Assembly (NCBI GenBank): GCA_018334075.1
Contig: JAGXSC010000046.1
Location: 1 to 62,889 of the forward strand
Source: Actinomycetota bacterium
GTDB lineage: Bacteria > Actinomycetota > Coriobacteriia > Anaerosomatales > UBA912
Length of the DNA: 62,889 nt
Reading direction: 5' to 3'
Within the stretch, counting starts at the first letter, position 1; the number at the start of each line of letters is the position of its first letter. A program made the position numbers and the translations under genes. The notes beneath the pieces are model-generated. The model did not search any database, was not told where the DNA came from, and was given only the letters and a program-made list of their open reading frames with translations. This document shows positions 4,927-14,448 of this stretch, piece after piece.

Positions 4927-6911
4927 AAGCGTTTGCCTCCTTCCTGCTCACCCAACTCCGGGTGAAGCACCAGTGATTTGGTCCGCCAGGAAAACGGCGA
5001 GTAGACGCTTCCTCCGGCACTGTAAAACTTGCTGAAGAACTCAACAAACTGCAGACGCGCTGAATGAACGAATGCGCCGAGGATGTTGATGGCGATGTTG
5101 AACGCATGTCCGACGATAAGGATCACGGCTGCCGCAAGAATGCCGATCCCCCACGGCAACTCCACGACCATGCCGGCAAGAATGTTCATTACCTGCCCTA
5201 CCAGCAAACTTGCAAGCCCCAACGCCACAAGCCGGGTGTAGGAAAGGAAATCCGAGAGGTACCCCGAGAGCCCATAAAGCCCGAGTAGCCCTCTTCCCAA
5301 CCCGACTAACGTCTCTTTCGGGCTCAACCTCATCACGGCCTCGATCACGCGCCCTTTGAGCACAACAGCGGCCGTCCCAAGCCATGCCAACCACAAGCCT
5401 TGACTCGTCACACCAGCCAGGACCAGCGCGACAATCATGAGTAACCCGGAAAAATCGTCCTGCACCGCAACCGGCCACTCGCCGGCCTTGACCAAGCGAT
5501 ACATATTTACCAGCACCCCGAACACCACGTGGATAACGCCAATGGCTACCGAGATCAGCAGCAGCAGCATTATGTCCTCCAGCGGATCAAAGAGCGGCTG
5601 ATAGCGCAGGAAAGCGGGAAGCTGGTCGACCGACAGCGCGAAATAACTCCTGCTGGCCACTCCGACAACTATCGAGGCCAGGCCTCCCGCGATTAGCAAG
5701 TCCATGAATCTCTGCACTCCGGGGGCCACATCCAGCCTTGTTTTGATCAGATAGCCAAGAGCCATCAGTACCGCCCCATACCCTGCGTCTCCCACGCACA
5801 TCCCAAAGAACAGGAAGAAAAATCCCGCAACCAGCGGCGTTGGATCGATGCCTCCGTACGCAGGACGGCCGTACAGGTCCGTCAAAACTTCAAAAGGACG
5901 CAAGTACCAAGGATTCTTCAAAGCCACAGGGACAGATTGCCCCTTTTCCGGCTCGCTGAAAGTGATGTCGACTTCACTTGAAATCGACGACAGGAGCTGC
6001 TTGAGTGAATCGCTTTCGCACTGAGGTACCCAGCCCTTCAGCGAAAAGGTCTTGTGTGTGGCGACAAAGTTTTCGCGGATATCGAGCGCATCTCGATTGC
6101 TCAACAAAGCCTGAACAAGCGCACAGGCGCGTTCGTAGCCAGATTCAAGTTCGAGGGCCCTTCGCCTCAGCTCGGCCTCCTGCCGGTCAAGCTCGCCAAG
6201 CTGCTCGCAAGCACGGGCTATCTCCTCGGCGGGGTAATCGACAAGCTCCAGGAATGAAGCCTCTCTAAAATCAAAGGTCGCAAGCGTCGAACGTGTCTGG
6301 TCAACCACATCCTTGTGGACCATCACGATCCACGCTTCCCGACCGCCGCCACGGCCCGCCTCATCGACAGTGACCTCAGCCACCTCCTCGCGCAATGCCT
6401 GGCGAATCTCGGACGAGCGCTCGAAGGGAACCGTTCCGGCGATGAGCGCAACACGGTCGCGGCACTTCCACTGCGATATCTGTAGCCGCACCTCCCGCCA
6501 GGGAGTGAGCTCGTCGACTAGCGCCAACAGGCGTTTTCGTTGCCGCTCGATCCCGGAAAGCCTGGCCGACATGGCATCGCACTCAGCATAGAGCGCGTCG
6601 AACTCTTCATCGGCGGCCAGCTGAGTGAACTCGTTGGTTGATATGTGAATCTTCTCGGAAATGAATGCTCCGAGCCTGACATCCGACACATGATACCTGC
6701 CGAGAAACTCACAGACGAACTGCGCGCGAGCGATCTGCTCATCGAGCGACCGGCTACGCCCCAAATCGATCAAAAGGCGCTCGGGTCCCTGGAGATCAAC
6801 ATCAAAGCGCTCGATCTCGACCGCCCCGAACTCCTGTAGGGCCGACACCGTATCCTCCAACAGTGAAATATGCCCGATGACCGTAGCCTGCAGCATGCGC
6901 ACGATCGCCAT
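4923..6911 (-). CDS. ntpI: V-type ATP synthase subunit I (membrane stator, a-subunit homologue)
   Basis: Large stator subunit that forms the ion half-channels against the rotor ring. The 662 residues divide into a cytoplasmic N-terminal half with long coiled coils (about residues 80-300) and a C-terminal half with about seven to eight membrane helices from residue 355 on. The segment FLSYTRLVALGLASLLVGQVMN near residue 555 contains the conserved membrane arginine needed for ion release from the rotor carboxylate. LYGRPAYGGIDPTP and FGMCVGDAGYG are further family hallmarks. It overlaps the rotor gene by four bases and follows the ntpF-like gene after two bases. Confidence 0.95.
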   Translation of the reverse strand: MAIVRMLQATVIGHISLLEDTVSALQEFGAVEIERFDVDLQGPERLLIDLGRSRSLDEQIARAQFVCEFLGRYHVSDVRLGAFISEKIHISTNEFTQLAADEEFDALYAECDAMSARLSGIERQRKRLLALVDELTPWREVRLQISQWKCRDRVALIAGTVPFERSSEIRQALREEVAEVTVDEAGRGGGREAWIVMVHKDVVDQTRSTLATFDFREASFLELVDYPAEEIARACEQLGELDRQEAELRRRALELESGYERACALVQALLSNRDALDIRENFVATHKTFSLKGWVPQCESDSLKQLLSSISSEVDITFSEPEKGQSVPVALKNPWYLRPFEVLTDLYGRPAYGGIDPTPLVAGFFFLFFGMCVGDAGYGAVLMALGYLIKTRLDVAPGVQRFMDLLIAGGLASIVVGVASRSYFALSVDQLPAFLRYQPLFDPLEDIMLLLLISVAIGVIHVVFGVLVNMYRLVKAGEWPVAVQDDFSGLLMIVALVLAGVTSQGLWLAWLGTAAVVLKGRVIEAVMRLSPKETLVGLGRGLLGLYGLSGYLSDFLSYTRLVALGLASLLVGQVMNILAGMVVELPWGIGILAAAVILIVGHAFNIAINILGAFVHSARLQFVEFFSKFYSAGGSVYSPFSWRTKSLVLHPELGEQEGGKRL

Positions 6912-6913
6912 CG

Positions 6914-7228
6914 CTAATCGCCCCTCAATGCCTTGACGACGGCCCGGACAGCCGGCTCGAATTCCTTCTCGGCGTGCCGAATAAGGCGATCGAGCTCCGC
7001 CTCGGCCTCTATGGCGACCGAATCCGCTGTTGCCTGAGCCTCTCGGCGAATCCGGAGCGTCAACTCCTCGATCTGCCCGGCGGTCTCGCGCTCAGCCTCC
7101 AGTACAACAAGCTCGGCTTGCGCTTCTGCCTGCTTGAACAGGTCGCGTGCGTGCGAGCGCGCCGCTTCGAGAGCTTTTTGCGACGCCAGTTCTGCATGAA
7201 CGATGGTTTCGAGCTTTTCCATGTCCAA
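6914..7228 (-). CDS. ntpF: V-type ATPase G/H-type peripheral stalk subunit (coiled coil)
   Basis: First gene of the ATPase operon. The 104-residue product is almost entirely a charged, alanine- and glutamate-rich helix (for example HAELASQKALEAARSHARDL and AEAELDRLIRHAEKEFEPAV), the form of the G/H subunits that pair with subunit E in the peripheral stalks. Its position ahead of subunit I copies ntpF in E. hirae and atpG in Thermus. A purine-rich stretch (GTAGGGGCAG) lies about 9 bases before the ATG. The promoter should be within the 88 bases shared with the divergent gene at 7317; an AT-rich TATATA on the minus strand near 7260 is one candidate, without a good -35. Confidence 0.88.
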   Translation of the reverse strand: MDMEKLETIVHAELASQKALEAARSHARDLFKQAEAQAELVVLEAERETAGQIEELTLRIRREAQATADSVAIEAEAELDRLIRHAEKEFEPAVRAVVKALRGD

Positions 7229-7316
7229 TCTGCCCCTACCCTGAAATGCACTCCTTCAACTATATACCTATCCTCAGTTACACGGCTATACTGTTCGCTG
7301 TGTCGTTGCCCAATCC

Positions 7317-8165
7317 TTGAAAGACCCTCCAATTCAGCCAATCCGACGAACAACCCTGAAGAGCTATCCCGGCCGCACGCGGTCGGCTAAAGCCGCACGT
7401 CGCCGGGCCATTGCGCTGTTCACAGTCGCTTTGGCCGCTGTCGCAGTCGTCTTAGTCGCAACGGGCTGGCATAGGTCGAGCGGCGAGCGAACGTCGGCTA
7501 CTCCGCTCACTGCGCACCCCGAGATCGTTGGGGTAGAGCGGACCGTAACGGCAAGCGCCACGCCCACTCCCTTTTTCGCGCGCTATCGCGACCTCCATCT
7601 TTACCTGCCGATTGACCCGCAGAGCCTGACCGCGATCGCATTCCACCAAGCCTCCGGAAACACCGCGCGCTCCCTGGATTCGCTGCTGCCCGACGCCGAC
7701 ATGAATCTGGCCACGGAAACCCGCAAGCCCCAGCGCGTGAGGGTAAGTACCGCCGAGACAGGCCAAGCGGTGCTCGAGGGAGAAGTTTTGAGGATGTGGC
7801 GCACCAACCGTAGCGGGCCTCCCGACACCGCTGCCGACGTCGGAGCCGCTCCAGGAACCATCGTGCTCGCACCGGTCAGCGGCAAGGTAACCGGCGTGAT
7901 TCGCTACCAGCTTTACGGAGCCGACGAAGACCACGAAATCCACATCCAGCCCTTCGGAAGGCCGGATCTATGCGTGGTGCTGATCCACATCGATGAGCCT
8001 TCGGTCGAGCGCGGCGATGCCGTAGTGGGCGGAATAACTCCAATTGCCCGGGTACGTCTGCTGTCAGACAAGATCGACCATCAGCTGGGGGGCTACACCA
8101 CGTGCGGTGGCGATCACGTCCACATTCAGGTGAACAGCGCAGCTACCTGCCCAAAAACCCCCTGA
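7317..8165 (+). CDS. Exported M23-like (LytM-fold) protein, probably degenerate
   Basis: A membrane-anchored or secreted protein of 282 codons. Residues 1-30 are strongly basic and are followed by one hydrophobic helix (about 31-50, ALFTVALAAVAVVLVATGW). The C-terminal third resembles the LytM/M23 beta-fold: APVSGKVTGVIRYQLYG, VVLIHIDEPSVERGDAVVGG, then GGDHVHIQVN, which matches the HxH part of M23 peptidases. The usual first metal pair HxxxD is not clear, so catalytic activity is doubtful. The start is a TTG without an obvious ribosome site; TATACT at 7287-7292 could be a -10 box. The last 23 bases overlap the convergent DUF951 gene. Confidence 0.6.
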   Translation: MKDPPIQPIRRTTLKSYPGRTRSAKAARRRAIALFTVALAAVAVVLVATGWHRSSGERTSATPLTAHPEIVGVERTVTASATPTPFFARYRDLHLYLPIDPQSLTAIAFHQASGNTARSLDSLLPDADMNLATETRKPQRVRVSTAETGQAVLEGEVLRMWRTNRSGPPDTAADVGAAPGTIVLAPVSGKVTGVIRYQLYGADEDHEIHIQPFGRPDLCVVLIHIDEPSVERGDAVVGGITPIARVRLLSDKIDHQLGGYTTCGGDHVHIQVNSAATCPKTP

Positions 8166-8337
8166 ACCTCCGGTCGAACTCATAGCGCTCCAGCATTACC
8201 TGCCGCTCGCATCCCAGACACTGCAGCTTGATGTCGGCGCCAACCCGAAGCACTTCCCACTCGTTAGTCCCGCACGGATGCGGCTTTTTCAGCCGCACGA
8301 TATCTCCTACCCGCACCGGAGTTATCGGAACCCCCAT
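8143..8337 (-). CDS. DUF951 family protein
   Basis: Short conserved protein (64 residues) of unknown function, common in Firmicutes and Actinobacteria. The core VGDIVRLKKPHPCGTNEWEV followed by LRVGADIKLQCLGCERQVML is diagnostic, with three cysteines (CG...CLGC) that could bind a metal. The ATG at 8337 is chosen because TTTTGGAGGCGACT precedes it with ideal spacing; longer readings would begin without a ribosome site. It stands alone on this strand, convergent with the M23-like gene and divergent from the ACT-domain gene. In many genomes this gene lies near ychF or rpsF/ssb; that context is absent here. Confidence 0.88.
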   Translation of the reverse strand: MGVPITPVRVGDIVRLKKPHPCGTNEWEVLRVGADIKLQCLGCERQVMLERYEFDRRFRGFLGR

Positions 8338-8441
8338 AGTCGCCTCCAAAAAACACAATAACCGCCAACCGCCTGACACGCGCCCAAACAAGCGGTATAA
8401 ATGAGTATAGCCTTTTCATCAGCACTTCAAAGGAGCCAAGC

Positions 8442-8717
8442 ATGCACGTGAAAACCGTCCTGTCGGTTCTAGGTCAGGATCGAATCGGAATAGTGGCCGC
8501 CATCTCAACGGCATTGTTCGAGTCCGGCGCAAACATCGAAGACATCCGTCAAACCATCATTGGCGGCATCTTTTCGATGACCATGCTGGTGACCGTGAAT
8601 GAAGATGTGGCCTCCTTCGATACAGTTCAGGCGCGTCTGGCCGAGGTGGGTGAGCGCATCGGCATGCAAGTTACCCTGCAGCGCGAAGACGTATTCCACT
8701 TCATGCACCGCATCTAG
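8442..8717 (+). CDS. ACT domain protein (UPF0237)
   Basis: A single stand-alone ACT domain of 91 residues, presumed to bind an amino acid or related small ligand. The start MHVKTVLSVLGQDRIGIVA and the DIRQTIIGGIFSMTMLV segment are typical of the UPF0237 branch. AAGGAGCC lies 7 bases before the ATG. It is followed after 21 bases by the UPF0210 gene, a pairing found in many Gram-positive bacteria and archaea, so the two are probably co-transcribed and functionally linked. Nothing in the sequence reveals the ligand. Confidence 0.9.
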   Translation: MHVKTVLSVLGQDRIGIVAAISTALFESGANIEDIRQTIIGGIFSMTMLVTVNEDVASFDTVQARLAEVGERIGMQVTLQREDVFHFMHRI

Positions 8718-8738
8718 ACCACCAAGGAGAACAATACA

Positions 8739-10103
8739 ATGCGCATAACCCCCGAAGAGGTCCTTGAGACGCTACTGATGGTCACACAGCAAAACCTCGA
8801 CATCCGCACCGTCACACTCGGACTTTCGCTGGACGGCTGCGCAGACCCCGATATCCACAAGCTGGCCGGAAACGTCTACGACCTGATCTGCACACGCGCC
8901 AGGCACCTGGTGCCGGTCGCCGAGGCGATCTCGCGAGAGTATGGAATCCCCATCGTCAACCGCCGGATCGCAGTCACCCCGATATCACAGCTCGCGGCAG
9001 CGTGCGGCAGTGCTGACCTGACGCCTGTCGCGGCGGCTCTCGACCGCGCCGCGCATGAGGTCGGAGTTGATTTCATCGGCGGTTTCTCGGCGCTTGTGCA
9101 TAAAGGAGTCGGCGAAGGGGACAGGCGAGTGATCGACTCAATACCCTCGGCTCTCGCTAGCACCGACAGGGTATGCGCGTCGGTCAACGTAGCCTCCACT
9201 CGAGCCGGCATCAACATGGACGCGGTTCTGCGAATGGCGGAAGTGATCGTCGCGACGGCGCACGCCACCGCCGAGATCGGCTCATTCGGTTGCGGCAAAT
9301 TGGTGGTATTCGCCAACATGGTCGAAGACAACCCCTTCATGGCTGGCGCAGTGCACGGCCCTGGCGAGCCGGACGCCGTCATCAATGTCGGGATCAGCGG
9401 CCCCGGAGTGGTGCGCGCGGTCGTCGAGTCCCTTTCGGCCGAAGCCGATCTGACCGAAGTCGCCGAGGCTATCAAGGCCACCGCCTTCAAGATCACGCGA
9501 GCAGGCGAGCTCATTGCCCGCGAAGCCGCCCGCAGGCTGGAAGTGGCGATGGGCATCGTGGATCTCTCGCTGGCGCCCACGCCCGCGCAAGGGGACAGTG
9601 TCGCCGCGATCATAGAGGCCATCGGCGTCGAACGCTGCGGCGGCCCTGGCACGACCACGGCGCTCGCCCTGCTCAACGACGCCGTGAAGAAGGGTGGAGC
9701 GATGGGAACCTCCAGTATCGGGGGCCTGTCCGGCGCGTTCATCCCAGTCTCCGAGGACGCCAACATGCTTCGGGCGGTGCTCGAAAACGCGCTCACGCTA
9801 GAAAAGCTCGAAGCTATGACAAGCGTTTGCTCCGTCGGCCTGGACATGATAGCTATACCCGGAGACACGCCGGTAGAGACCATCGCCGCGATCATATCGG
9901 ATGCTTGCGCAATCGGGGTGATCAACAACAAGACAAGCGCGGCCCGGCTCATTCCGGTAATCGGAAAGAGCGCCGGCGATATCGTCGAGTACGGTGGACT
10001 CTTCGGAACAGCGCCCGTGATATCGGTAAACCAATGGGCTGGAACACGCCTTATTCGCCGAGGAGGCCGCTTCCCGGCTCCCTTGGGGTCCCTTAGGAAC
10101 TAA
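8739..10103 (+). CDS. PFL-fold family protein (UPF0210/DUF711)
   Basis: A 454-residue member of the UPF0210 family, whose structure is related to the glycyl-radical enzyme barrel of pyruvate formate-lyase but lacks the radical glycine; the reaction is unknown. Family hallmarks are [49 protein letters not shown] and the C-terminal [20 protein letters not shown]. The length is normal. AAGGAGAACA precedes the ATG. It follows the ACT-domain gene in the same direction, the usual arrangement, suggesting that the ACT protein regulates it. Confidence 0.93.
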
Positions 10104-10136: not shown

Positions 10137-11846
10137 TCAGGGGACCAGCGTGTATCTGATGGTGACTTCCAGAGGAACTCCGGGGTCGGTGGTCCAGGGG
10201 GGCACGGCCCATAGCGAGTCGGTGATCGTTCTCGGCCCGGCCGGCATGGATCTGCTGGCGTCACCGGAGATCGCAAACCCCATCGCACTTACGTCACCCG
10301 ACACAGTTCTGGTCAGGGTGTAAGGGACGTTCGCATCGATCACGACATCAATCGCTTCTGTAGCCGATGGTGAGTCCGGCATCAAGGCGCCAAAGTCCAC
10401 CAGGGCTGTGGGTAGTGTCAGCGAAAGTCGCGTGACGAAACGTACTTCGAAACCAGTGCGCACTATCTCGTTGCCAGTGGATGCATCTACGACAGCCACC
10501 GTCCAGTCCCCGCTGGGCGCATCCACGGAGAGCGCATGGCTAGACGCTGCCCGGCCATCCGCACCCACGGCTATTGACCCGCTTTGCGCAGCCGTCGCGC
10601 CCAGCGGGTCGAGCCACCTGAAGCGCACGTTACTTCCCGGCTGAAGGCCACTGCCCTGTGCCCATGCGGTGGCGCCCTGATCGAAAGCGGTGGCTGTTGT
10701 GGTAAGCGAGGCGTCTGAGTACAGTAGCAGTCGCACAGCCCTCGTGGTGTTGGTGGCTGTGGCCGTGACCGCAGGCCGCGTCGCGTGCGTGGCGCGCACC
10801 GTGGTGACATCGATCGCTCCAGGCGGGGCCGTGCCAGGTGCCGAGATCACGACGTTGATGGTGCGGCTCCCGCCTCTCGCCAACCTGATAGCCGAGGTAG
10901 CCTCTCCGCTGACCGCATCCCGAATGACGACACTCCACCCAAGCGAGGATGACGCTGTCAGGTTGAATGTCTCGGTCCCGTTGCCGGTATTGGCAACCGT
11001 GTGCGTGTAAGTGACCGCTTCACCGGGAAATACCGCCCCCGAATTATTGGGCGTAAGGGTTACGCCGAAATGACGCATCGATAGCACCGGCGCGTTATCC
11101 AGCGAAGTGTTGTCCAAGTCGGGCTCACGAGCACCGGTACCCGCACGCAAGGCAGCAAATTGGATATTGATCGGACTTCCGGGCGGCACGCCAAGCTGGG
11201 CCCAGGTGAGACTGAACTCAATCGCTCCACCAATAATGCTAGAGGCAGAGATCGTGGGGCCGGTGATCGCGGCTGGTGTCGATATGGTTCCCGGCGGTCG
11301 GAATCCATCACCCCGCAGCAGATCCCCAGCGGGATCTTGGGGAGTGTACCCGGCCCACCAGAGCCCGCGCACATCGCCGTCGCGATCGTAAACGATAATT
11401 GCCACTCTATCTGTGCTTTGCATCCTGCCGTCGCCATCCAAATCCAGGTAGGCGCGAACATTTCGACGCTCCCTTTCACTTACGGAGTTGAAGCGCACAA
11501 ATCCAAAATAGTGTGTCGCGTCAAAGGTGGATGACACCTGCGAAATGTCCGCCTGTGCGTGCGCCGGGTCAGGCTCGGCAGGCTCGATAGTGTCCGACCG
11601 AGTGTTGTTGGTGTTCGCCAGAACAGCGCTCCAGTCAGTGAACGCGCCATCGATTGTAATAGTGACAGGATGCACGAGCGCGGCCGCCTTGTTAGTCGGC
11701 AGACTGGTAAAAGTCGCCAGCAGCGCGACGAGGAGCACCCCACATATAGCGGCACCCACCACAGTTCGACTCATTATCAACGTCTGCTTCACTTTCACTT
11801 CACTGTAACCCGCGTCCACTAGCTGGTCGACAACAGTATGCGCCAT
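10137..11846 (-). CDS. Large exported surface protein with DOMON/CBM9-like, NEW3-like and C-terminal repeat-type domains
   Basis: Function unknown. An N-terminal signal peptide or anchor (TVVGAAICGVLLVALLATF) leads to a region resembling CBM9/DOMON sandwiches (ITIDGAFTDWSAV, then AYLDLDGDGRMQSTDRVAI with an EF-hand-like Dx(D)xDG loop, and GAIEFSLTWAQLGV). Around residue 270-350 is a NEW3/DUF11-like domain (VTYTHTVANTGNGTETFNL). The last 95 residues (VDFGALMPDSPSATEAIDV, LTRTVSGDVSAMGFAISG) are homologous to the small protein encoded divergently at 12092. The start is uncertain: the longest reading uses ATG at 11846, but GTG at 11798 (then KVKQTL) or ATG at 11774 gives a better signal peptide. 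It is divergent from the 12092 gene across a 245-base region. Confidence 0.72.
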   Translation of the reverse strand: MAHTVVDQLVDAGYSEVKVKQTLIMSRTVVGAAICGVLLVALLATFTSLPTNKAAALVHPVTITIDGAFTDWSAVLANTNNTRSDTIEPAEPDPAHAQADISQVSSTFDATHYFGFVRFNSVSERERRNVRAYLDLDGDGRMQSTDRVAIIVYDRDGDVRGLWWAGYTPQDPAGDLLRGDGFRPPGTISTPAAITGPTISASSIIGGAIEFSLTWAQLGVPPGSPINIQFAALRAGTGAREPDLDNTSLDNAPVLSMRHFGVTLTPNNSGAVFPGEAVTYTHTVANTGNGTETFNLTASSSLGWSVVIRDAVSGEATSAIRLARGGSRTINVVISAPGTAPPGAIDVTTVRATHATRPAVTATATNTTRAVRLLLYSDASLTTTATAFDQGATAWAQGSGLQPGSNVRFRWLDPLGATAAQSGSIAVGADGRAASSHALSVDAPSGDWTVAVVDASTGNEIVRTGFEVRFVTRLSLTLPTALVDFGALMPDSPSATEAIDVVIDANVPYTLTRTVSGDVSAMGFAISGDASRSMPAGPRTITDSLWAVPPWTTDPGVPLEVTIRYTLVP

Positions 11847-12091
11847 TACGAAATATCGGGTTTTTCGCCGTCGAACTTGATCTTGAGGTATTAAGGCCGC
11901 TTATACTGAATAGGTGCCTTTCATCTTAGACTAAGCGCCAAATGAGACTCAACGATCCCGCTTATCCGACCATTTATCCTTCGGTCAGAATACAGTTGTG
12001 TGTCTTGTCACAAAGTCCGATAAAAAACCCAGAAGGCGAACGAGAAAATACCTCTCGTCGGAACGCAAAGGAAAAGTAAAGGAGAAAAGGT

Positions 12092-12538
12092 ATGAAAATG
12101 AAGATGTTAGTAACGGCGGCGGTCGCATTCGCGCTGCTCGCCACGATGGGGATATTCGCGGTAGCCGATACCGTAACCCACTCGGGCACCTCACCCGTAT
12201 CGGGCACGGTGACTGCGCGCGCGACCGTAAACCCGATGATCGCACTAACTATCACGACACCCGATGTAGGCCAGGCTGTTGAGTTCGGTGCAGTCAACCC
12301 GGAGACCGCGCATTCAGATACGGTTGCCCTTGAGGTCAGGTCAAACAGAAATTTCGACCTGACTCGATCCATCACAGGTGATGTCGCGCTGATGGGATTC
12401 TCCACATCGCTGGGCGCTCAAATGAATCAGGTTAGGGGAGTACGTCCCTTTAGCGACACCTACTCGATCAACGTCCCCTACACTACTCTTCCCGGTAACT
12501 ATGCAGCATCCGTCACTTATACTGTGACTCAGCAGTAA
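12092..12538 (+). CDS. Small secreted beta-rich protein sharing a domain with the 10137-11846 protein
   Basis: A 148-residue exported protein of unknown function. Residues 1-25 form a clear signal peptide (MKMKMLVTAAVAFALLATMG, cleavage near AVA-DT). The mature part is a single threonine- and valine-rich domain: AVEFGAVNPETAHSDTVAL, LTRSITGDVALMGFSTS and a YT-rich ending (NYAASVTYTVTQQ). This aligns end to end with the C-terminal domain of the larger divergent protein. AAAGGAGAAAAGGT precedes the ATG. No cell-wall sorting motif and no W-x-L motif are visible, but the size and the membrane partner downstream recall WxL-type surface systems. A strong terminator follows at 12554. Confidence 0.78.
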   Translation: MKMKMLVTAAVAFALLATMGIFAVADTVTHSGTSPVSGTVTARATVNPMIALTITTPDVGQAVEFGAVNPETAHSDTVALEVRSNRNFDLTRSITGDVALMGFSTSLGAQMNQVRGVRPFSDTYSINVPYTTLPGNYAASVTYTVTQQ

Positions 12539-12553
12539 AACGTGTCGCAAACT

Positions 12554-12585
12554 AAAACCCCGTGCGAATTTTCGCGCGGGGTTTT
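12554..12585. terminator. Bidirectional intrinsic terminator between convergent genes
   Basis: A nearly perfect hairpin: AAAACCCC GTGCG, six-base loop, CGCGC GGGGTTTT, flanked by A-tract and T-tract so that it reads as a terminator on both strands. It sits 16 bases after the small secreted protein and 8 bases after the membrane-anchored protein that converge here. Confidence 0.9.
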
Positions 12586-12592
12586 ATCATTG

Positions 12593-13636
12593 CTATCTTT
12601 CGCGTTCCTCTCGGCGCCTACGCCGAGCCTCGGCCCTGGCATCCAACTTCTGATTCTTCCCTGACCGCACGCGCAGCACGTGCCAAGCCCCCCTCGCCAA
12701 CAGTATCAGCACGGCTGCACCGAGCGCGACTACCGCCCAAAGCGGTATAATCCAAACACTGCGACTCTCAAGTAACTGTTCGGGCTGCTCGATTATCTTG
12801 CCCTCTTCGTCAACCCTGTAAACCTCAGCCTGAACGTTGTAGGGGCCGAACAACTGCCGGTCGGAGGCTATCTCATCTTGCAGCCGCCTGTTGCTGCCCG
12901 CGAACACGACCGAAGCCAGGTGCGGCTCAGAGCGAGCGATCTCGACATCGTTGCGATCAAAAAGAACCACAGCGACACTGAGTCGCTGGTCCAGATTCCC
13001 CTCGTTTCGAAGTGTCAGATCGAAAGGAATCTGGTTCCCAATGACAAAGCCCGGCACAATAAACGGGCGGATGCTCATGCGCTCAATATGCTCACCTGTC
13101 ACACGCATCTGCAGGCGGCTGCCTATTCGGCCTCTAACCTGGGTAATCGCGCCTTCGGTGCCTTCCGGCATATCGAACATCTCAAAGAATAGGATGACAT
13201 TCTGATCGCCCGGAGCGGCGTTTAGCGGAGGTTGAAAGACAAACTTGACCGGGATACGCTGGCCCGGGGCCATCTCGAGGTAAGGCGTGTTGCCGATCGC
13301 CCTGGCTTCTGCGGGCATCTGAATCCTCACCCACGAAGTTGGCCGACGCGCGAAATCCGGGTCGTCGCGGTCAGGAGTCTTGTAAGTGATCTCACCTTCC
13401 TCGTCGATGATCTGATCGGAGGTGTAGACAAGTACCCTTATCGGCTCATCGCTTTCGTTGATCACAACCACTTCGCCGGACTTCTCCTGCCCGGGATCGA
13501 CCTCGAAGGCAAAGGAGCCGGCGGAAAGCGCGAGCGTGCGCTCAGCGTATGCCGAGGCCGGCGATATCGCCATAGCTAAAGCAACAAGAAGAGCGAGGGC
13601 CGCGCACCATCTGAAGAACATCCCTTGCACCTTCAC
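12593..13636 (-). CDS. Membrane-anchored surface protein, DUF916-like sandwich plus C-terminal helix
   Basis: A 347-residue exported protein. A signal peptide (ALALLVALAMAISPASAYA) is followed by two beta-sandwich regions, one transmembrane helix near residues 295-320 (WIIPLWAVVALGAAVLILLA) and a highly basic cytoplasmic tail (RAEARRRRREERER). The first sandwich (SFAFEVDPGQEKSGEVVVIN, then PYLEMAPGQRIPVKFVFQPP) looks like the DUF916 domain of WxL accessory proteins, and the second (GNQIPFDLTLRNEGNLDQRL) like their DUF3324 part; this is inference from pattern only. The start is a GTG that overlaps the TAG of the LytTR regulator gene by one base (TAGTG), so the two are translationally coupled. 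Confidence 0.72.
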   Translation of the reverse strand: MKVQGMFFRWCAALALLVALAMAISPASAYAERTLALSAGSFAFEVDPGQEKSGEVVVINESDEPIRVLVYTSDQIIDEEGEITYKTPDRDDPDFARRPTSWVRIQMPAEARAIGNTPYLEMAPGQRIPVKFVFQPPLNAAPGDQNVILFFEMFDMPEGTEGAITQVRGRIGSRLQMRVTGEHIERMSIRPFIVPGFVIGNQIPFDLTLRNEGNLDQRLSVAVVLFDRNDVEIARSEPHLASVVFAGSNRRLQDEIASDRQLFGPYNVQAEVYRVDEEGKIIEQPEQLLESRSVWIIPLWAVVALGAAVLILLARGAWHVLRVRSGKNQKLDARAEARRRRREERER

Positions 13637-14379
13637 TATATGCCGACCGCCTCCCTGAACGCGCGTGTTTGTCGCCTGGAAACAGGAATCCGGGTCTCAT
13701 CGCGATCGCCGACTACAACAACGTACGCGCCCTCTTCCCGCAAAATCTCCTTAACCTTGTCGAGGTTGATCATGAACGCCCGGTGTGCGCGAACGAAGTT
13801 CTCCTTGGCGAGCCGCGTTTCAAGCTCCGTTAGTGTCATGTCGACGAGATACTGGTTTTCAAAGGTGTGGGCATACGTGGACTTGTTGCGCGCAGAGAGC
13901 AAGACAATATCCTCGATGGCGAGCAGGGCGATCCTGCCGCCTTTTCTGACGGCAAGCTTTCTGAAATCGCCATCGGTGGAGGTGGTCTGACTCGGCTTGA
14001 TGCGCCTGCTTTTCGCAAGGCTCTCGACCCGCGCTGAGAGCTCTAATACGCTAAACGGTTTTGTCACATACTGCTGCACACCCTGCTTGAAAGCGAGGAT
14101 CTTCGCCAGATCCTGGGTCTTGGCGCTCAGCATTATCACGGGGATGCCGGCCGTATCAGGGTTGTTGCGGATCTCCATCAAGGCCATCCAGCCGTCCACA
14201 CGAGGCATCATTATGTCGAGAATGACGACATCGATCGACTCACTGGCCAGGACCTCTATGCCCTCGCCGCCGTCCGCGGCGCCGAACACACGCATGTTAT
14301 CCATTTCGAGGCCCATTTTGATCATCTCAACGATCGATTGATCGTCATCGATCACTAAAACATTAATCGGGTCAGTCAT
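13636..14379 (-). CDS. Response regulator, receiver + LytTR DNA-binding domain
   Basis: A 247-residue transcription factor. The receiver domain (about 1-120) has the acidic pocket D11-D12-D13, the phospho-acceptor D55 in VVILDIMMPRVDGW, the conserved S/T in VIMLSAK and K in VTKPFSVLEL. The C-terminal LytTR domain (about 145-245) has the typical IALLAIEDIVLLSARNKSTY, FVRAHRAFMINLDKVKEI and a final RIPVSRRQTRAFRE. No histidine kinase gene is nearby, so it is an orphan in this window. It is transcribed just ahead of, and overlaps, the membrane-anchored surface gene, which makes the surface cluster its most likely target. Start ATG is 69 bases from nfnB's stop. Confidence 0.92.
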   Translation of the reverse strand: MTDPINVLVIDDDQSIVEMIKMGLEMDNMRVFGAADGGEGIEVLASESIDVVILDIMMPRVDGWMALMEIRNNPDTAGIPVIMLSAKTQDLAKILAFKQGVQQYVTKPFSVLELSARVESLAKSRRIKPSQTTSTDGDFRKLAVRKGGRIALLAIEDIVLLSARNKSTYAHTFENQYLVDMTLTELETRLAKENFVRAHRAFMINLDKVKEILREEGAYVVVVGDRDETRIPVSRRQTRAFREAVGI

Positions 14380-14402: not shown

Positions 14403-14422
14403 ATGAGCGGAAAGCCGCTCAT
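14403..14422. other. Perfect hairpin between nfnB and the LytTR regulator gene
   Basis: Inverted repeat ATGAGCGG, loop AAAG, CCGCTCAT. It lies 26 bases beyond the nfnB stop and 23 bases before the regulator start. On the minus strand only ATTT follows, so it is a weak terminator for nfnB at best; an operator for the regulator operon is the alternative. Confidence 0.5.
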
Positions 14423-14448
14423 CTACGGATACCGCCACTTAGTATAGC

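What the first reader, a model, noticed from the sequence alone, without database searches (positions are those of the whole stretch)
10137..14379. Undescribed surface-protein locus under a LytTR regulator
A small secreted protein (12092) and the last 95 residues of a large exported protein (10137) are homologous: FGA...P, LTR..(S/T)GDV..MGF and a Thr-rich YT ending align in order. They are divergently transcribed. A DUF916-like, C-terminally anchored protein with a basic cytoplasmic tail follows, coupled by a TAGTG overlap to a LytTR response regulator. This resembles the logic of WxL systems (small domain protein, large domain protein, membrane partner) without the WxL motif, so it may be a new surface-assembly family.
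Basis: partly seen in the sequence, partly recalled or inferred. Interest (0 to 1): 0.75.

Follow-up and report, generated by a model that had tools for sequence, protein, structure and literature searches.

The report
Divergent WxL-type surface cluster, LytTR-controlled
This locus in a little-known anaerobic actinobacterium encodes a small and a large secreted protein that share one domain, a membrane protein that probably holds or assembles them on the cell surface, and the regulator that probably switches them on; it is a remote, unrecognised cousin of the WxL surface clusters of lactic acid bacteria and a candidate for the unexplained pili-like hairs of this bacterial order.

Summary
The small protein (12092) and the C-terminal ~110 residues of the large one (10137) are homologous (BLASTP 8e-13). 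In relatives of the same order (Anaerosomatales, inferred) nearly every locus encodes a small protein made of this domain; most intact loci add a large protein ending in it, opposite a conserved LytTR-regulator/membrane-protein pair. Domain and membrane protein co-occur across 69 genomes (41 both, 2+2 one, 24 neither; p=4e-14).

The membrane protein is a WxLIP (DUF916/DUF3324) homologue (profile-profile E 4e-9; PF06030 above cut-off in 8 relatives; structure matches solved WxLIP). The shared domain is not a recognised WxL domain (0/69 genomes), but comparison through distant actinobacterial members links it to WxL (E 2e-5, 0/150 shuffles), with the two W-x-L motifs decayed to aromatic-x-L and Y-T-V. 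Its predicted fold most resembles chaperone-usher pilins, the partner's fold their chaperones.

LytTR-type direct repeats lie upstream of these genes in 27 of 40 loci (2.9 expected).

Best reading: a divergent WxL/WxLIP-type cluster working by strand complementation; a pilus is possible, unproven.

The parts
13636..14379 (-). LytTR-type response regulator (247 aa), first gene of the regulator/membrane-protein pair
   Evidence: Pfam Response_reg 5e-25 and LytTR 1e-23; beside the membrane-protein gene in nearly all relatives
12593..13636 (-). WxLIP-like (DUF916-like) membrane protein: signal peptide, two Ig-like domains, C-terminal TM helix, basic tail
   Evidence: PF06030 21.6 bits in the window, above cut-off in 8 relatives; profile vs WxLIP E 4e-9; AF2 pLDDT 90.5; Foldseek 9i25 WxLIP 6.6e-10 and CfaA/CsuC/FimC chaperones
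13100..13210 (-). Long beta-hairpin (residues 143-179) of the membrane protein with invariant F150-F151 and G169-R170; candidate donated strand (inferred)
   Evidence: Strands 143-155 and 166-179 with lowered confidence at the tip; conservation in A1; analogy to the WxLIP hairpin that enters WxL (PMC10599100)
12092..12538 (+). Small secreted protein: signal peptide plus one copy of the shared domain
   Evidence: AF2 of the mature protein pLDDT 92, six strands, chain ends in the last strand; Foldseek best hits are chaperone-usher pilins
12167..12238 (+). N-terminal extension of the mature small protein (SGTVTARATV pattern), outside the strand core in the model; candidate donor strand (inferred)
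   Evidence: Same alternating VTVTATV stretch right after the signal peptide in nearly all small proteins; no strand assigned for mature residues 1-24
10137..11846 (-). Large exported protein; start probably at about 11774
   Evidence: Ig_VWA7 4e-6 and MG2-like 9e-5 matches
10140..10493 (-). C-terminal copy of the shared (WxL-like) domain in the large protein
   Evidence: E 5e-31 with profile A2; BLASTP to the small protein 8e-13
11040..11681 (-). N-terminal module of the large protein, conserved in 13 large proteins, DxDxDG calcium-loop-like motif; ligand unknown
   Evidence: Alignment A4; only weak Dockerin_1/GEVED matches; no solved relative by sequence
11896..11924 (+). LytTR-type direct repeat GCCGCTTAT-N11-GCCTTTCAT between the two divergent genes
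   Evidence: Best pair in the intergenic region, spacing 20
14414..14442 (+). LytTR-type direct repeat GCCGCTCAT-N11-GCCACTTAG upstream of the regulator (possible autoregulation)
   Evidence: weak in the window taken alone, but such repeats are enriched at this place in relatives
12554..12585 (.). Palindrome with A/T flanks between the convergent small-protein and membrane-protein genes; likely shared terminator
   Evidence: Read directly from the sequence; not listed by the terminator scan

Best explanation
A divergent WxL/WxLIP-type cell-surface cluster of Anaerosomatales, switched by its own LytTR regulator. Proposed mechanism: the small and large proteins are exported with an incomplete Ig-like domain; the membrane-anchored WxLIP-like protein offers a beta strand from its long hairpin, completes the fold, and holds or hands on the subunit outside the membrane. 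The small protein is the abundant subunit (one to three genes per locus). The large protein carries ligand-binding or spacer modules on the same domain and would be the tip or adhesive part. The N-terminal strand of the small protein could replace the partner's strand in a neighbouring subunit and so build a fibre. Shown by computation: gene set, homologies, co-occurrence, regulator-type repeats, fold class. Inferred: strand donation, order of assembly, polymerisation, function as an attachment structure.
For: Domain shared by small and large proteins. Co-occurrence 41/2/2/24, p=4e-14. Membrane protein homologous to WxLIP: PF06030 over cut-off in 8 of 69 genomes, hhalign E 4e-9 over both domains, best solved relatives by sequence EfmWxLIP1 9i25/9i1y, weak, Foldseek 9i25 6.6e-10. 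Domain linked to WxL: hhalign E 2.3e-5 for distant members, 4e-4 (global) for the order's own profile, 0/150 column shuffles, reversed controls at or below 1.1% probability; aromatic-x-L and Y-T-V motifs at the two W-x-L places. Fold of the small protein: top Foldseek matches CfaB, FimA, FimG, PapG pilin domain, PapA, CsuA/B, TasA; fold of the partner: CfaA, CsuC, FimC, Caf1M. The WxLIP hairpin inserts into WxL in published models (PMC10599100). LytTR-type repeats upstream in 27 of 40 loci vs 2.9 expected, spacings 20-21 preferred. Cultured Anaerosomatales bear pili-like appendages; those of Parvivirga appear only with ferrihydrite (PMC9686372).
Against: Pilin matches of the small protein are weak (E 3.5e-3 or worse, TM mostly below 0.5) and Ig-like folds match one another easily; the partner also matches RbmA and HYDIN/SPD-2-type Ig proteins. 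No complex was modelled. WxL homology of the order's own profile alone is weak (local probability 4%). No usher and no known polymerising enzyme in the locus. Published WxL work favours non-covalent peptidoglycan binding, not fibres. The repeat scoring matrix was adjusted after seeing the first hits, although the first, literature-consensus test was already enriched.
Confidence: 0.6

Rival explanations
1. A WxL-like wall-attachment platform without fibres: small and large proteins bind peptidoglycan non-covalently through the shared domain and the membrane protein only stabilises them.
For: Same gene set and remote homology as WxL clusters, whose domain binds peptidoglycan in Firmicutes (PMC5817068, PMC9772566).
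Against: The domain lacks the tryptophans and most other WxL motif residues; up to three small paralogues per locus and a conserved N-terminal strand suit a polymer better; fold search favours pilins.
Confidence: 0.35
2. A surface fibre of donor-strand type responsible for the pili-like appendages of Anaerosomatales, assembled by a membrane-anchored chaperone without usher.
For: Two-sided fold match (pilins and chaperones), N-terminal strand, weak matches to NCBIfam 'Pam pilus' pilin and PamT models, appendages in cultured members.
Against: Weak scores; only 43 of 69 genomes carry the membrane protein; type IV or tad pili were not examined and could form the appendages; a reported diameter of 0.8-0.9 nm is thin for an Ig-subunit fibre.
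Confidence: 0.3
3. Unrelated Ig-like secreted proteins beside a general membrane protein; the WxL and pilin resemblance is convergence of small beta sandwiches.
For: Ig-fold proteins often give weak mutual matches; no Pfam family for the domain.
Against: Strict co-occurrence and co-location with a WxLIP homologue in the order and again in distant actinobacteria; reversed and shuffled controls.
Confidence: 0.1

Closest known systems
WxL / WxLIP (DUF916-DUF3324, Csc) clusters of Lactobacillales and Bacillales
   Same: Small domain protein, large protein with the domain at its C-terminus, membrane protein with two Ig-like domains and a C-terminal TM helix; membrane protein homologous; at least one Firmicute cluster also lies near a LytTR regulator
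   Different: Shared domain below WxL detection, motifs decayed to aromatic-x-L and Y-T-V; a LytTR regulator adjoins the membrane-protein gene in nearly every locus; small and large genes usually converge on that pair; no LPxTG protein seen; Actinomycetota instead of Firmicutes
Classical and archaic chaperone-usher pili (Fim, CFA/I, Csu)
   Same: Predicted folds of subunit and partner, adhesin-like large protein with C-terminal subunit domain, N-terminal strand on the small subunit
   Different: No usher, partner anchored in the membrane, single-membrane cells, no detectable sequence similarity
NCBIfam CPR 'Pam pilus' (NF058581 pilin, NF058579 PamT)
   Same: Weak matches at the C-terminal strands of several small proteins (best 22.5 bits)
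   Different: All far below the curated cut-off of 55 bits; no description found in the held literature

Membership tests
WxL domain (PF13731) | Match to the family model | tested here: not met
   0 of 69 order genomes at E up to 1; control Lactococcus lactis positive
WxL domain (PF13731) | Two Trp-x-Leu motifs, the distal one YXXX(L/I/V)TWXLXXXP | tested here: not met
   Window has F-D-L and YAASVTYTVTQQ; in 41 copies motif 1 is W/F/Y then L/F/I in most, motif 2 starts with Tyr in 40
WxL domain (PF13731) | Detectable homology by profile-profile comparison | tested here: inconclusive
   Order profile 4-15% probability; distant actinobacterial relatives 76%, E 2.3e-5, 0/150 shuffles
WxL domain (PF13731) | Binding to peptidoglycan | not testable with these tools
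   Needs purified protein
WxLIP (DUF916/DUF3324) | PF06030 match above cut-off | tested here: inconclusive
   Window protein 21.6 bits (cut-off 27.3), 8 relatives above cut-off at the same locus
WxLIP (DUF916/DUF3324) | Two-domain homology plus C-terminal TM helix | tested here: met
   hhalign 96%, E 4e-9 over 214 columns; helix 299-346; Foldseek 9i25
WxLIP (DUF916/DUF3324) | NQIDKxxxYFDLK motif | tested here: not met
   Aligned stretch reads LSAGSFAFEV
WxL cluster | One WxLIP with at least two domain proteins, small and large | tested here: met
   Both kinds in the window and in 21 other loci; several loci, many of them short contigs, show only one
Chaperone-usher pilus | Outer-membrane usher (PF00577) | tested here: not met
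   None in the genome; control E. coli positive
Chaperone-usher pilus | Subunit Ig fold lacking a strand, completed by a donated strand | tested here: inconclusive
   Six-strand model with free N-terminus, fold hits to pilins; donation not modelled
Sortase-assembled pilus | LPxTG-type signal on subunits | tested here: not met
   No such motif in the four proteins; the sortase gene lies elsewhere in the genome
CPR Pam pilus pilin (NF058581) | Curated cut-off of 55 bits | tested here: not met
   15.8-22.5 bits

The most novel reading that the evidence does not exclude
WxL/WxLIP-type clusters, of which this is a diverged actinobacterial branch, are single-membrane counterparts of chaperone-usher pili: a membrane-anchored two-Ig-domain chaperone assembles donor-strand fibres without an usher, here under a dedicated LytTR regulator, and these are the pili-like appendages of Anaerosomatales.
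Probability: 0.22. Interest if true: 0.88.

Novelty: new variant of a known kind. Interest (0 to 1): 0.6.

Why it matters
WxL clusters are described almost only from Lactobacillales and Bacillales, mostly gut commensals, and are read as host-binding platforms. Finding the same gene logic, a homologous membrane partner and a remote WxL-like domain throughout an environmental actinobacterial order, and in other Actinomycetota, makes a host-specific role unlikely as the ancestral one. It offers a concrete candidate for the pili-like appendages of Anaerosomatales, and the fold resemblance of both partners to chaperone-usher subunits and chaperones makes a testable claim about how Gram-positive WxL systems work. 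The regulator sites give a direct handle.

Tried and rejected
Single-sequence search of genome contigs with the membrane protein found nothing; the alignment worked. Solved-structure search with the domain profile gave only chance hits, and with the large protein's N-terminal module nothing useful. A direct order-profile vs WxL comparison was not convincing at first; more WxL sequences and distant relatives were needed. The phylum-wide search failed twice for technical reasons and worked with fewer genomes. A WxL-motif query of plasmids found nothing; the WxLIP fragment did. No description of the 'Pam pilus' was found in the library. Sortase pilus rejected for lack of sorting signals.
Full report
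OBSERVATION. BLASTP between the last 97 residues of the large protein and the small protein gives 34% identity over 74 residues, E 8e-13 for that comparison. A profile started from the small protein converges on 66 reading frames in the 41 loci searched. They fall into small proteins (signal peptide plus one domain) and large proteins with the domain at the very C-terminus (about 270-1150 aa). The shared unit is therefore real and far beyond chance.

DISTRIBUTION. The membrane protein was found in 43 of 99 relatives, all in the window's order. The shared domain was found in 43 of 69 genomes of the order; 41 have both, two only one, two only the other, 24 neither (p=4e-14). Three of the four exceptions look like assembly effects: the lone membrane-protein genes lie at contig ends or near one (G040, G045), and G027 is a 64% complete genome; G034 was not followed up. 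The regulator and membrane protein are neighbours in nearly every locus. Record titles of matching contigs (Coriobacteriia, Anaerosomatales) and the NCBI lineage place the organism, by inference, in Anaerosomatales. The usual order is regulator, membrane protein, then small and large genes on the opposite strand pointing towards them, between a glutamate-synthase-like gene and a 454-aa housekeeping-type gene; the window's divergent small/large arrangement is an exception.

MEMBRANE PARTNER. Pfam gives WxLIP_PGBD (PF06030) at 21.6 bits in the window, below the cut-off of 27.3, but 20 of 36 aligned homologues match at E<0.01 and 8 of 69 genomes pass the cut-off at this locus. Against a set of WxLIP proteins from lactic acid bacteria on plasmids, profile-profile comparison gives 96%, E 4e-9, over both Ig-like domains. 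The AF2 model (pLDDT 90.5) matches WxLIP bound to WxL (9i25, E 6.6e-10) and the pilus chaperones CfaA, CsuC, FimC and Caf1M at about 1e-9 to 1e-6, along with other Ig-type proteins such as RbmA. The long hairpin 143-179 is strongly conserved and least certain at its tip; in published models the corresponding WxLIP hairpin becomes ordered on entering a gap in WxL (PMC10599100).

SHARED DOMAIN. No Pfam family matches any of 41 copies, and the WxL model finds nothing in 69 genomes of the order. The AF2 model of the mature small protein (pLDDT 92) has six strands, with the chain ending in the last one and the first 24 residues outside the sheet. In nearly all small proteins that N-terminal part is the same alternating hydrophobic stretch right after the signal peptide. 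Most of the best Foldseek matches are chaperone-usher pilins (CfaB, FimA, FimG, PapG pilin domain, PapA, CsuA/B), with TasA among them, all weak (E 3.5e-3 to 0.1, TM 0.5 or less).

RELATION TO WxL. Distant homologues of the membrane protein occur in other Actinomycetota (20 of 119 sampled genomes, the window's own included). In 9 of 15 such loci inspected a match to the small protein's profile lies beside or near it, and two or three more have a neighbour with the same kind of C-terminal ending. Several of these distant small proteins keep a W-x-L at the first motif place (for example NKPWSLAV). Profile-profile comparison with 18 WxL domains gives 76%, E 2.3e-5 for the distant set, 40% for the combined set and 4% (local) or 15% (global, E 4e-4) for the order's own set; no column shuffle of 150 reaches any observed score, and reversed alignments reach at most 1.1%. 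Column shuffles destroy strand periodicity, so they are a lenient control; the reversed alignments are the better one. In the order the motifs read W/F/Y-x-L/F/I in most copies and Y-T-V/A, at the places of the two W-x-L motifs; the distal one in the window fits the published form YXXX(L/I/V)TWXLXXXP (PMC5817068) apart from W to Y, L to V and the last Pro. The simplest reading is a diverged WxL-type domain, but formal membership tests are not met.

REGULATION. With the LytTR consensus as recalled from the literature, direct repeats upstream of the domain genes are enriched (18% of upstream regions score 16 or more, against 2.4% of shuffles), and unbiased 9-base direct repeats peak at spacings 20-21. 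With a matrix refined on these hits, the best repeat pair in each locus of up to about 20 kb lies within 350 bp upstream of the regulator, small, large or third small gene in 27 of 40 loci, against 2.9 expected; pairs in these regions prefer spacings 20 and 21. The refinement is partly circular and related genomes are not independent, so the p-value printed by the script should not be taken literally. The window has candidate pairs at 11896-11924 and 14414-14442, although its best-scoring pair overall lies elsewhere.

FUNCTION. The large protein carries an N-terminal module with a calcium-loop-like DxDxDG motif, conserved in 13 large proteins but of unknown ligand, and Ig/MG2-like spacers. The general picture, an adhesive or ligand-binding protein and an abundant single-domain partner on a common assembly domain held by a membrane protein, fits an attachment structure. 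The first cultured Anaerosomatales have pili-like appendages over the whole cell; in Parvivirga they appear only with ferrihydrite (PMC9686372); the passages retrieved name no genes for them. Connecting the two is a hypothesis.

VERDICT. Observation confirmed; interpretation partly supported. It is a new, diverged, LytTR-controlled variant of the WxL/WxLIP kind, not a new kind. The claim worth testing is that this kind works by strand complementation like chaperone-usher pili.

Noticed in passing
L049:8181-8501, L050:9290-9610, L051:7979-8299, L048:9354-9683 and others: A third, shorter secreted protein (~105-110 aa) with the same N-terminal strand but a truncated domain lies beside the membrane-protein gene in some relatives, in several with a LytTR-type repeat upstream; possibly a capping or base subunit.
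   Followed up: partly
L133 (G187:C3), 5418-9084: In another actinobacterial lineage a related LytTR-type regulator (E 8e-52) again sits next to two small proteins and the membrane protein, so the regulator link is wider than the order.
   Followed up: partly
L031:2259-3685: Two copies of the regulator gene in tandem, with a repeat pair between them.
   Followed up: no
e.g. G062:C64:2602-2991, G004:C16:55670-56056, G004:C38:52293-52682: Weak domain matches (about E 1e-4 to 1e-8) at other loci in proteins of about 800-1200 aa, possibly further clients or a related domain family.
   Followed up: no
NCBIfam NF058581 and NF058579: NCBI curates a 'Pam pilus' pilin and PamT for CPR bacteria that weakly match this domain; no paper was found in the held library.
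   Followed up: partly
CP069367.1:102334-102483 (hit H1): A record labelled Klebsiella pneumoniae plasmid holds a stretch 100% identical to the Enterococcus faecium WxLIP fragment, probably contamination or a mis-assembly.
   Followed up: no
L148:1989-2744: In Enterococcus gilvus a LytTR regulator and a GHKL-domain gene lie a few kb upstream of a WxL/WxLIP cluster, so LytTR control may occur in classical WxL clusters too.
   Followed up: no
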